The notes beneath the pieces are model-generated. The model had not been told where the DNA came from. It saw only the letters and a list, made by a program, of their open reading frames with translations, and did not search any database. Shown in pieces: positions 1 through 25,152 of a DNA stretch of 32,504 nt. The stretch comes from an uncultured Bacilli bacterium. Lineage in GTDB: Bacteria; Bacillota_I; Bacilli_A; ML615J-28; CAG-698. The stretch spans positions 1 to 32,504 of the forward strand of contig CANQVC010000019.1 in NCBI GenBank assembly GCA_947627195.1. Direction: 5' to 3'. The number at the start of each line of letters is the position of its first letter. The stretch's first letter is position 1. The translations under genes were made by a program, and so were the position numbers.

Positions 1-201
1 GAACAAGCAAAGCCAAGTCAACCAGTTCAAAATAATAAACCAGTTGAACAAGCAAAAGCTAATCAACCAGCACAAAATAATAAACCAGTTGAACAAGTAA
101 AACCAGTTCAACCAGCACAAAATGCTAAGCCAGTTGAACAAGCAAAACCTAGTCAACCAGCACAAAATGCTAAACCAGTTGAACAAGCAAAGCCTAATCA
201 A
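1..201 (+). repeat. 45-bp in-frame tandem repeat
   Basis: Units of 45 bp begin at 40, 85, 130 and 175, preceded by a partial unit at 1-39. Each codes for PVEQAKPxQPAQNxK. Differences between copies are mostly single-codon changes. The period is a multiple of three, so copy-number change would alter length without breaking the frame. Confidence 0.85.
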
Positions 202-22209: not shown

Positions 22210-22608
22210 ATGAATAATCAAAAACATTTTCGTGATATTTCACGAAACAAAAATAATCGAAATTTAATTCCTTTTGATGAAGCATTAGGAAAAGGAACAA
22301 TCTTTAGAAATATCTATGTTCCTTATAAAGTAGATCCTCAAGCACCAATTCCTAATGATGAAAAAGAAAATTTGTTATTGAATATGCAAAAGTATGCTCT
22401 TGCAGTTCAAGATATTAGTTTATATTTAGATGTTGAACCTAATAATAAAGATGCAATTGAATTATATAAAGAATGTTTAGAGAATTTAAAGAATACCAAT
22501 GAAGAATATGAAGCTAAATATGGTTCATTAACTAAAACTTCCAAATATGTGAATGGATATCCATGGCAATGGGATAAAAATAATTGGCCATGGTTAATGG
22601 AGGGATAA
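22210..22608 (+). CDS. cotJB: Spore coat CotJA-CotJB fusion protein
   Basis: A 132-residue protein that joins two families normally encoded separately. Residues ~18-42 (LIPFDEALGKGTIFRNIYVPYK) match the core of CotJA (EALRKGTLWKALYDPY in Bacillus). Residues ~55-130 match CotJB: a helical segment (YALAVQDISLYLDVEPNNKD), then YEAKYGSLT and the hallmark YPWQWDKNNWPW near the C terminus. CotJ proteins belong to the inner spore coat, with CotJC. CGGAGG is present upstream, with about 13 bp between the site and ATG. The gene ends 1 bp before cotJC, the usual operon order. The fusion looks genuine: the frame is continuous and there is no internal ribosome site between the halves. Confidence 0.9.
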   Translation: MNNQKHFRDISRNKNNRNLIPFDEALGKGTIFRNIYVPYKVDPQAPIPNDEKENLLLNMQKYALAVQDISLYLDVEPNNKDAIELYKECLENLKNTNEEYEAKYGSLTKTSKYVNGYPWQWDKNNWPWLMEG

Positions 22609-22609
22609 T

Positions 22610-22726
22610 ATGTGGGCTTATAAAAAGATGTTATGGTTTCCAATAAATATCAAAAAGAAAGATTTAAAATTAGCTAAGGCTTTAGTTACACAATATGGGG
22701 GCCTTTACTCAAATAAACACAAATAA
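22610..22726 (+). CDS. cotJC: cotJC 5' part, interrupted after codon 30
   Basis: ATG at 22610, 1 bp after the CotJA-JB stop, opens a frame reading MWAYKKMLWFPINIKK and, later, LAKALVTQYGG, the N terminus of CotJC (MWVYEKKLQYPVKIKN in Bacillus). At 22702 the homology stops: the frame continues for only seven codons of element sequence and ends at TAA 22724-22726. The coding part that belongs to CotJC is 22610-22701. The break falls exactly at the 10-bp core repeated at 24671-24680, where homology resumes. Joining 22610-22701 to 24681-25152 gives 564 nt with no stop, a 187-residue CotJC. As the genome stands, only a 38-residue peptide would be made. Confidence 0.93.
   Translation: MWAYKKMLWFPINIKKKDLKLAKALVTQYGGLYSNKHK
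22692..22701 (+). repeat. Left attachment core of the cotJC element
   Basis: AATATGGGGG, identical to 24671-24680. Flanks differ on both sides (C before, C after; the right copy has G before, T after), so the exact crossover lies within these 10 bp. It overlaps CotJC codons Gln28-Gly31. Confidence 0.9.
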
Positions 22727-22754
22727 AAAAGCCTAGCTTAAATATTAGGCTTTT
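22722..22754 (-). terminator. Terminator of the recombinase gene
   Basis: The stem AAAAGCCTA / TAGGCTTTT (22727-22735, 22746-22754) overlaps the recombinase stop codon. The A run on the plus strand before it gives the T run for minus-strand transcripts. It may also stop transcripts entering from cotJ. Confidence 0.82.
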
Positions 22755-24186
22755 ATTGGTAAAATTCAATTTGTTTTATACCATTTTCTTTATCAACTTC
22801 TATATATTTAATAAATTTATTAATAAATTCTTTTTTCTCTAATGGTAATAAAGAACACCATATATCAATTATAGATTTTGTTATTATTTTAAATTCAGTG
22901 AGTTTGTTTAGATTTACAAGCTCACTTTTTTTATTTTCTCTTTCTTTTATTTTTATATTTATTTCTTTTAAATCATTTTCTAAATTTATTAATATTTCTT
23001 TATAATCAGCTTTACTAATAAAATCATCAAGAATCATATAATGAAGTTTTTTCTTGCGATTATTTATTTTTTCAATATTTTCTTTAAGTTTTATTATTTC
23101 TTTATCAATTTCATCAATTTGTTTAAGGTTTATTTTAATTTTAACTTCATAAATATTATTAAAATATTTATTCAAATAATTAATAAAAAAATTTTCCATT
23201 AAAGTTTGATTTATTCCTTTATTATTACATCTACCTTGAACTGTTCTATGACATTTATAATACAATATATAATTATTTCTTTTTTTATTAAATGTTGATA
23301 AAGTGGTAAGTCTTTTATGACAAGAAGAACAATATAATTTATTTTTAAATATATAATTATTATTACCAATCTTTTTTGGAAACTTTTTTCTTTCATTTGT
23401 ATATTTTTTAATTTTCTTAAATTCTTCAATTGTAAATATTGGTTCAATATTATTGGCTTTTAAATAAATTGGCTCTTTGTTTTTAGGATGATATAAGAAA
23501 TATCCTGAATAATACCATGCATGAGTTAACATGTAATTAATAGAATTTTCAGCGAATTCATTTCCTCTTTTGTTTCTTAATCCTTCTAAATTAAGTTTCT
23601 TACAAATTTTATTTGAACCATATCCATCAATATGCATTTGAAATATTCTTTTCACAATCTTAGCTTCATCTTCATTAATTGAATACATTTTTGTATTAGA
23701 ATCATAATTATATCCTAAGGGAACTCTACCTGTATACCATCCTTCTTTAGCTCTTTGTTCCATTGCAACAGCTACTCTTTCTCCTATTCTTTCTCTTTCA
23801 TATTGGGCAAATATACCTTTGATATTTAGATTTAATCTATCACCAGCAGTAGAAGTAGTTGTTTGATCAGTTACACTTAAAAATTCAATTTTATAATGTT
23901 TAAAATTATCAATTAAAGTCCATAAATCAACAATATCACGAGTTAATCTATCTAAACAATATACTAATACTATATCAAATTTATTGTCTTTAATATCTAA
24001 AAGAAGTTTTTTTATTTTTGGTCTATTTAAGTTTTTACCTGAATAACCATCATCTATATAAAAATCATATATTTCATAATTATGTTTAATAGTCCATTCA
24101 ATAATATTTCTCTTTTGGGCTTCAATTGAAAAACCTTCATTTGCTTGTTCATCTGTGGATACTCTAATATAAGCTGCTACTTTCAT
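22753..24186 (-). CDS. Large serine recombinase (SpoIVCA-like site-specific integrase/excisionase)
   Basis: A 477-residue large serine recombinase. The N-terminal resolvase domain (about 1-145) has the catalytic Ser10 in YIRVSTDEQ, arginines in YCLDRLTRD, and GIFAQYERERIGER. The recombinase domain follows (VPLGYNYD...IFQMHIDGYGSNKI...LNLEGLRNKRG), then a zinc ribbon (LYCSSCHKRL and YKCHRT...RCNNKG), and a long Lys/Glu-rich coiled coil near residues 355-435. This is the layout of SpoIVCA and phage serine integrases. It is transcribed opposite to cotJC, with its 3' end next to the left core. AGGAGA precedes ATG. The role is recombination between the two cores at 22692 and 24671. No frameshift or missing catalytic residue is seen, so it should be active. 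Confidence 0.96.
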   Translation of the reverse strand: MKVAAYIRVSTDEQANEGFSIEAQKRNIIEWTIKHNYEIYDFYIDDGYSGKNLNRPKIKKLLLDIKDNKFDIVLVYCLDRLTRDIVDLWTLIDNFKHYKIEFLSVTDQTTTSTAGDRLNLNIKGIFAQYERERIGERVAVAMEQRAKEGWYTGRVPLGYNYDSNTKMYSINEDEAKIVKRIFQMHIDGYGSNKICKKLNLEGLRNKRGNEFAENSINYMLTHAWYYSGYFLYHPKNKEPIYLKANNIEPIFTIEEFKKIKKYTNERKKFPKKIGNNNYIFKNKLYCSSCHKRLTTLSTFNKKRNNYILYYKCHRTVQGRCNNKGINQTLMENFFINYLNKYFNNIYEVKIKINLKQIDEIDKEIIKLKENIEKINNRKKKLHYMILDDFISKADYKEILINLENDLKEINIKIKERENKKSELVNLNKLTEFKIITKSIIDIWCSLLPLEKKEFINKFIKYIEVDKENGIKQIEFYQ

Positions 24187-24207
24187 TTTAACATCTCCTC
24201 TATATAA

Positions 24208-24256
24208 AATATATATAATATATATATTATATATATTAAATTATTAAATAATTTAA
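24208..24256. repeat. Two AT palindromes upstream of the recombinase gene
   Basis: A perfect 30-bp palindrome of A and T only (24208-24237) overlaps by 2 bp a 21-bp inverted repeat TTAAATTATT-A-AATAATTTAA (24236-24256). Both lie 22-70 bp upstream of the recombinase ATG, in the promoter/5' leader region, and could be an operator or RNA hairpins. No clear sigma-A or sigma-E promoter is visible there. Confidence 0.8.
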
Positions 24257-24435
24257 TTACAATATTGACAATTTTCTTAATTTTAAGCCTTAAATTTGCG
24301 TTTAAATCGTTTTTATAAACATAAACCATTAAATAAATGAGTAAAAAGAATTGGCAAAATAAATTAATTTTTTAAAATTTATATTTATGTATAGGACAAA
24401 TATTGTATTGAATAAAATAAAAAAGAGGATTAAAA

Positions 24436-24555
24436 ATGGTAGAAGAAAAAGAAAAAATAAATAATATTGATACTTTAGTTTATGAAATAATGAAATGGTA
24501 TATTGAAAAAAGATATCCTGAATATGAAATTGTGTCATTCGAAGAAAAAAAGTAA
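24436..24555 (+). CDS. 39-residue protein inside the cotJC element; candidate excision factor
   Basis: A short ORF with a good ribosome site: GAGGA (24425-24429), 6 bp, ATG. It encodes MVEEKEKINNIDTLVYEIMK followed by WYIEKRYPEYEIVS and FEEKK: acidic and basic residues alternate with a central amphipathic helix, no cysteine. It lies divergent from the recombinase and reads toward the right core, in the same direction as cotJC. Serine integrases need a small directionality factor to excise; examples are the 58-residue SprB of SPbeta and the product of a small gene in the C. difficile skin element. I see no sequence match to either, so the role is inference from size and location. It could also be a chance ORF. 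Confidence 0.6.
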   Translation: MVEEKEKINNIDTLVYEIMKWYIEKRYPEYEIVSFEEKK

Positions 24556-24670
24556 CTATAAAATAATATGATGGTCTTGACAATGCCTAAAAAAGTAAAA
24601 ATGATTTATTATTAGAAATAAGCAATTTTCTAAAATAACTAAAACGTTTCATTTATTTTGCATTTTAGTG

Positions 24671-24680
24671 AATATGGGGG
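24671..24680 (+). repeat. Right attachment core of the cotJC element
   Basis: AATATGGGGG, the second copy of the core at 22692-22701. Downstream sequence is cotJC (P-Y-G-E-L-S); upstream sequence is element DNA. Confidence 0.9.
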
Positions 24681-25152
24681 TCCATATGGGGAACTATCTG
24701 CAGCTTTACGTTATTTAAATCAAAGATATACAATGCCAGATAATAGAGGTAAAGCTTTATTAACTGATATTGGTACAGAAGAATTAGGACATGTTGAAAT
24801 GATATGTACAATGTATTATCAATTAACAGCTACTGCAACAATTGAAGAATTAAAAGAAGCAGGATTATGTTGCAATTATGCTCAACATGGTGGAGAAATA
24901 TTTATGACTGATTGTAATGGTGTACCAATGACAACAGCTAATATTGGTGCAACAGGTGATCCATTAGCTGATTTATCTGAAGATATGGCGGCAGAAGAAA
25001 AAGCTCGTGCAACATATGAACATTTAATGGATATGACTGATGATCCTGATTGTTTAGCTGTATTAGCATATTTACGTACAAGAGAATTAGTTCATTTTAC
25101 TCGTTTTAAAGAATTATATGATTATTATAAAGGCAACAATGTTAACGAGTAA
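24671..25152 (+). CDS. cotJC: cotJC 3' part (manganese-catalase-like spore coat protein), no start of its own
   Basis: This segment continues CotJC from the core: YGGPYGELSAALRYLNQRYT, TDIGTEELGHVEM, DMAAEEKARATYEHLM and RTRELVHFTRF. These are the family's metal-ligand motifs; in the joined 187-residue protein they include Glu35, Glu65, His68 and the C-terminal E and H of RELVHF. CotJC is related to manganese catalases and lies in the spore coat. The frame can be traced back to a TTG at 24658, but those upstream codons are element sequence and no ribosome site precedes it. No frameshift or stop has accumulated, and every expected ligand is present, which suggests the split gene is still under selection. 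Joined length matches the ~189 residues of Bacillus CotJC. Confidence 0.94.

What the first reader, a model, noticed from the sequence alone, without database searches (positions are those of the whole stretch)
24436..24555. 39-codon ORF in the element may be the recombination directionality factor
It has a good ribosome site (GAGGA, 6-bp spacing) and is the only other credible gene in the element. Serine integrases catalyse excision only with a small partner protein; SprB (58 residues) does this in SPbeta, and the C. difficile skin element needs a small protein too. If this ORF has that role, the element is a two-gene excision module and one of the smallest possible.
Basis: inference. Interest (0 to 1): 0.66.

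Follow-up and report, generated by a model that had tools for sequence, protein, structure and literature searches.

The report
Tiny candidate excision switch in cotJC
A 2-kilobase DNA element splits a spore-coat gene and carries only a DNA-cutting recombinase plus one 39-residue protein that is probably the small switch letting the recombinase cut the element out and restore the gene; this is likely but not proven.

Summary
The 39-codon ORF is at 24436-24555 with GAGGA six bases upstream of ATG, and it is the only ribosome-site-bearing ORF besides the recombinase in a 1,979-bp element that splits cotJC. It is more than chance: shuffles give an equal ORF with ribosome site 0.4% of the time, and its codon use is gene-like (p about 0.002). 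Excision at the 10-bp repeat AATATGGGGG restores an in-frame 187-residue CotJC that is 94% identical to the intact gene of a same-genus genome.
The directionality-factor reading is favoured but unproven (about 0.6). For it: size and charge (39 aa, pI 4.8; known factors 42-64 aa, mostly acidic), and the SPbeta layout, with recombinase and small ORF facing opposite att ends. SPbeta reduced experimentally to sprA+sprB still excises, so this looks like a natural version. New here: at least eight genomes carry cotJC split by serine-recombinase elements at two positions. One, a 3.7-kb element at the same site, has a 35-aa ORF in the same place with a mother-cell-type promoter.
Against it: no homologue of the ORF was found anywhere, including the nearest related element, and its own sporulation-promoter match is weak. 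Verified SprB also matches no family above cut-off, so missing homology decides little.

The parts
22210..22608 (+). cotJA/cotJB-like gene directly upstream of cotJC; carries a mother-cell-type -10 (CATATAGTA, 31 nt upstream of ATG)
   Evidence: Pfam CotJB E=8e-19 plus weak CotJA; promoter scan
22610..22726 (+). 5' part of cotJC (codons 1-31), then read into the element to a stop
   Evidence: 91% over residues 1-35 against composite CotJC; intact orthologue in G001/L033
22692..22701 (+). attL core AATATGGGGG (10-bp direct repeat, copy 1)
22692..24670 (.). the element, 1,979 bp, 20.5% GC
   Evidence: core-to-core distance; empty site in same-genus G001
22753..24186 (-). large serine recombinase, 477 aa, intact; 3' end faces attL; SD GAGGA
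   Evidence: PF00239 2e-37, PF07508 2e-15, PF13408 1e-6
24392..24401 (+). SpoIIID-like box TAGGACAAAT (suggestive only)
   Evidence: 66 matches of the loose consensus in the window against 42 expected; host encodes SpoIIID, 105 bits
24411..24419 (+). weak mother-cell-type -10, AATAAAATA (one mismatch), 25 nt upstream of ATG
   Evidence: not significant in AT-rich DNA
24425..24429 (+). Shine-Dalgarno GAGGA
   Evidence: sequence
24436..24555 (+). 39-codon ORF, candidate recombination directionality factor; acidic, pI 4.8; predicted helix at residues 2-26; 3' end faces attR
24671..24680 (+). attR core AATATGGGGG (copy 2)
24671..25152 (+). 3' part of cotJC (Mn-catalase-like spore coat protein)
   Evidence: PF05067 E=4e-43; with the 5' part gives 187 aa in frame

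Best explanation
The element is a skin-type developmental intervening element reduced to its minimum: attL, a serine recombinase, a small directionality factor (this ORF), attR. In vegetative cells the recombinase alone can only integrate or stay idle, so cotJC stays split. When the mother cell makes the 39-aa protein during sporulation, it binds the recombinase and switches it to attL x attR synapsis; the 1,979-bp circle leaves and cotJC is rejoined at its Gly31 codon. Shown: intact recombinase, exact repeats, in-frame restoration, a gene-like ORF. Inferred: the ORF's role, its binding to the recombinase, and the sporulation timing.
For: ORF is gene-like. Excision restores CotJC in frame, 94% identical to the intact G001 gene; both parts show dN/dS about 0.05 against G001. 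Layout equals SPbeta: yokA/sprA (-) at one end, yotN/sprB (+) at the other, each 3' end facing att; SPbeta reduced to sprA+sprB still excises in sporulation (PMC4191935). Size and charge fit GirX 42 aa, CD1234 53 aa pI 4.9, SprB 58 aa pI 5.4, Skr 64 aa. Independent cotJC elements repeat the plan: G183 (3,715 bp, same site, recombinase facing attL, 35-aa ORF facing attR with perfect sigma-E/K -10) and G296 (57-aa acidic ORF divergent from the recombinase with perfect -10). Host has SpoIIID and sigma-E/K-type sigma factors.
Against: No homologue of the ORF in its own genome, 395 class genomes, phages, viral contigs or 248 recombinase and other loci. In the nearest related element (G017) the gene facing the far att end is a 69-aa helix-turn-helix protein instead. 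The promoter and SpoIIID matches upstream of this ORF are not significant. The G183 counterpart is basic (pI 9.5), so the positional analogues share no chemistry. Some serine recombinases excise without a partner (TnpX, from general knowledge).
Confidence: 0.6

Rival explanations
1. The recombinase excises by itself (as TnpX-type enzymes do) or with a host-encoded partner; the ORF is a real small gene with another role, such as a leftover of the parent prophage.
For: No conservation of the ORF with related recombinases; G017 carries prophage-like repressor and peptidase genes, suggesting the parental type was larger.
Against: Sporulation elements whose factor has been mapped (SPbeta, skin of B. 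subtilis and C. difficile, gin, phi3T) use a small element-encoded factor. An element stripped to 2 kb that still keeps a gene-like ORF facing att suggests that the ORF matters.
Confidence: 0.22
2. The element is a dead remnant: cotJC is permanently broken and the ORF is decaying sequence.
For: The sole copy in this assembly is the integrated form; the element is very AT-rich (20.5% GC).
Against: Intact 477-aa recombinase, exact 10-bp repeats, in-frame composite and dN/dS about 0.05 in both parts of cotJC, though a recent insertion would also look like this. Split cotJC recurs in at least eight genomes with in-frame reconstitution where it could be tested.
Confidence: 0.1
3. The ORF is not translated; it is a chance open frame in AT-rich DNA.
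For: ORFs of this length without regard to ribosome site occur in 15% of shuffles; a longer ORF without ribosome site lies antisense to it.
Against: Ribosome site plus length p=0.004, codon-usage p about 0.002, the other frames of the stretch score negative.
Confidence: 0.08

Closest known systems
SPbeta SprA/SprB in spsM (B. subtilis), and the engineered SPmini
   Same: Serine recombinase and small acidic protein at opposite ends, 3' ends facing att; interrupts a spore-envelope gene; two genes suffice for excision
   Different: SPbeta is a 134-kb active phage; SprB (58 aa) has no detectable sequence similarity to this ORF; host gene is cotJC and the recombinase is a distant branch (about 26% over 152 aa)
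gin element in gerE (B. cereus), GirC/GirX
   Same: Non-phage element in a sporulation gene; GirX, 42 aa, is a verified directionality factor of nearly the same size
   Different: 28.6 kb, 31 genes, three recombinases
C. difficile skin, CD1231/CD1234
   Same: Small acidic factor (53 aa, pI 4.9) under sigma-E and SpoIIID; recombinase expressed separately
   Different: Larger, prophage-like, in sigK; its promoter was mapped, here it is a weak guess
B. subtilis skin, SpoIVCA/Skr
   Same: Small ORF beside a serine recombinase, long unidentified
   Different: Skr (64 aa) overlaps and is co-directional with the recombinase gene; here divergent
C. difficile phage phi027
   Same: Lies immediately beside a CotJC-family gene (cotG, downstream of attR; PMC12122855, PMC11222575)
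   Different: 56-kb phage beside the gene; no developmental rejoining of the gene is reported in the passages read

Membership tests
Recombination directionality factor of a large serine recombinase | Shifts the recombinase from attB x attP to attL x attR recombination | not testable with these tools
   Needs a recombination assay
Recombination directionality factor of a large serine recombinase | Binds its recombinase directly | not testable with these tools
Recombination directionality factor of a large serine recombinase | Small protein encoded in the same element as the recombinase | tested here: met
   39 aa, pI 4.8, in the 1,979-bp element
Recombination directionality factor of a large serine recombinase | Conserved with the same recombinase lineage (usual, not required) | tested here: inconclusive
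   Absent from the one 46%-identical relative; no closer relative available to test
SprB family (sequence homology) | Sequence similarity to SprB | tested here: not met
   Local score reached by 72% of shuffles
Sporulation gene-intervening (skin-type) element | Interrupts a sporulation gene, with short direct repeats that restore the frame when excised | tested here: met
   AATATGGGGG at 22692 and 24671; 187-aa CotJC restored
Sporulation gene-intervening (skin-type) element | Encodes a complete large serine recombinase | tested here: met
   Resolvase, Recombinase and zinc-ribbon domains above cut-off
Sporulation gene-intervening (skin-type) element | Mother-cell-specific control of excision | tested here: inconclusive
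   Weak -10 and SpoIIID-like box; perfect -10 in the G183 and G296 counterparts only
Sporulation gene-intervening (skin-type) element | Excision observed during sporulation | not testable with these tools
   No reads or cultures

The most novel reading that the evidence does not exclude
A naturally minimised, two-gene developmental excision module (recombinase plus a 39-aa directionality factor, 1,979 bp) in cotJC, one member of a wider pattern in which cotJC is repeatedly colonised at two positions by distantly related serine-recombinase elements that each bring their own tiny switch protein.
Probability: 0.5. Interest if true: 0.66.

Novelty: new variant of a known kind. Interest (0 to 1): 0.58.

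Why it matters
It would be the shortest directionality factor I know of and a natural copy of the artificial SPmini, far smaller than the skin, gin and SPbeta elements. It makes directly testable how little a serine integrase needs to reverse direction. The recurrence of split cotJC in at least eight genomes adds a sporulation gene to the list of developmental rearrangement targets; I found no report of cotJC rejoining in the papers searched.

Tried and rejected
Homology for the ORF: Pfam, NCBIfam, PHROGs (one hit at E=0.019 to phrog_3674, with no match in SPbeta: chance); tblastn of phages; 395 class genomes (24 other genomes at E<=0.1, below the roughly 40 expected by chance); phmmer over 248 loci; degenerate DNA patterns in viral contigs (3 hits, all in frames of 9-27 aa). 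Apparent helix resemblance to SprB: rejected, 72% of shuffles score as high. sigma-E/K promoter and SpoIIID box upstream of the ORF: kept only as weak hints because AT-rich sequence gives such matches freely. Small ORFs upstream of about 40 related recombinases: mostly phage helix-turn-helix genes or noise, no shared family. A relative of the ORF at G017's far end: none.

Full report
OBSERVATION. The ORF is as described: 24436-24555(+), 39 codons, GAGGA six bases upstream of ATG. Within the element it is the only ORF with a ribosome site besides the recombinase. Shuffled DNA gives an ATG ORF of that length with a ribosome site in 0.4% of trials; codon usage favours it by 16.6 bits (host genes) or 20.3 bits (recombinase), a level random open frames reach in at most 0.2%. 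The predicted product is acidic (pI 4.8) with one confident helix, residues 2-26.

THE ELEMENT. Two copies of AATATGGGGG, at 22692 and 24671, bound 1,979 bp. Removing one copy and the DNA between gives a 187-aa CotJC. A same-genus genome, G001, has the uninterrupted gene, 94% identical in protein. Both parts of the split gene show dN/dS near 0.05 against it, so nothing suggests decay, although a recent insertion would look the same. The recombinase (22753-24186, minus strand) is intact with all three domains. The host carries SpoIIID and sigma-E/K-type sigma factors.

WHY A DIRECTIONALITY FACTOR. In SPbeta the recombinase sits at one end on the minus strand and sprB at the other on the plus strand, both with 3' ends facing att; the window has the same arrangement with nothing in between. 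SPbeta cut down to sprA and sprB alone still excises during sporulation (PMC4191935). Known factors are 42 aa (GirX, PMC5595907), 53 aa (CD1234, PMC10747680), 58 aa (SprB) and 64 aa (Skr, PMC6957869).

COTJC IS A REPEATED TARGET. Among 395 genomes of the class, 116 have cotJC matches. In eight the gene is split by a serine-recombinase element, at one of two positions. Position A (Gly31): this window; G017 (46% identical recombinase, prophage-like, opposite orientation); and G183 (3,715 bp, core TTTGGTGGTGC, in-frame 186-aa composite). Position B (GTEEL, near codon 66): G101, G360, G384, G296 and G085, whose recombinases form a second, SprA-like branch. For G085 only the 3' part and adjacent recombinase were seen. 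G183 has a 35-aa ORF at exactly the place of this ORF, with a perfect sigma-E/K -10 (CATAAACTA) 27 nt upstream; G296 has a 57-aa acidic ORF divergent from its recombinase with CATACAATA 23 nt upstream; sprB has CATATAATA 34 nt upstream. The -10 consensus used for this scan is from general knowledge.

WHAT ARGUES AGAINST. No relative of the ORF was found, and the nearest related element has a helix-turn-helix gene in that place. As a control, verified SprB also matches no Pfam family above cut-off, so this negative carries little weight. The promoter of this ORF is only a one-mismatch -10 and a loose SpoIIID box, neither significant.

VERDICT. A real small gene in a minimal skin-type element; the directionality-factor role is the best explanation at about 0.6, resting on position, size, charge and precedent. 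It works like SprB if the inference holds; membership in the class of directionality factors awaits a recombination assay.

Noticed in passing
L283 6299-6778 and L288 1479-1571 (G183): A second small cotJC element at the same codon (3,715 bp) with recombinase, a MazF/PemK-like gene (by eye) and a 35-aa ORF with a perfect mother-cell-type -10.
   Followed up: partly
L278 1720-8918 (G296), L279/L280 (G360), L281/L282 (G384), L284/L285 (G101), L286 (G085): cotJC split at a second position near codon 66 by SprA-like recombinase elements; where both ends lie on one contig they are about 7, 35 and 43 kb.
   Followed up: partly
L282 5972-6124 (G384): A 50-aa DUF4177 protein (PF13783) occupies the sprB position next to attR of a 43-kb cotJC element; DUF4177 may include directionality factors.
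   Followed up: no
L032/L273 (G017): A recombinase 46% identical uses the same crossover codon but sits in the opposite orientation; its inferred attP has a perfect TATAGA-GG-TCTATA inverted repeat.
   Followed up: partly
window 22210-22608: One gene matches both CotJA (weakly) and CotJB, suggesting a fused cotJA-cotJB.
   Followed up: no
window 44-188: TTGAACAAG recurs every 45 bases at 44, 89, 134 and 179: a tandem repeat at the window's start.
   Followed up: no
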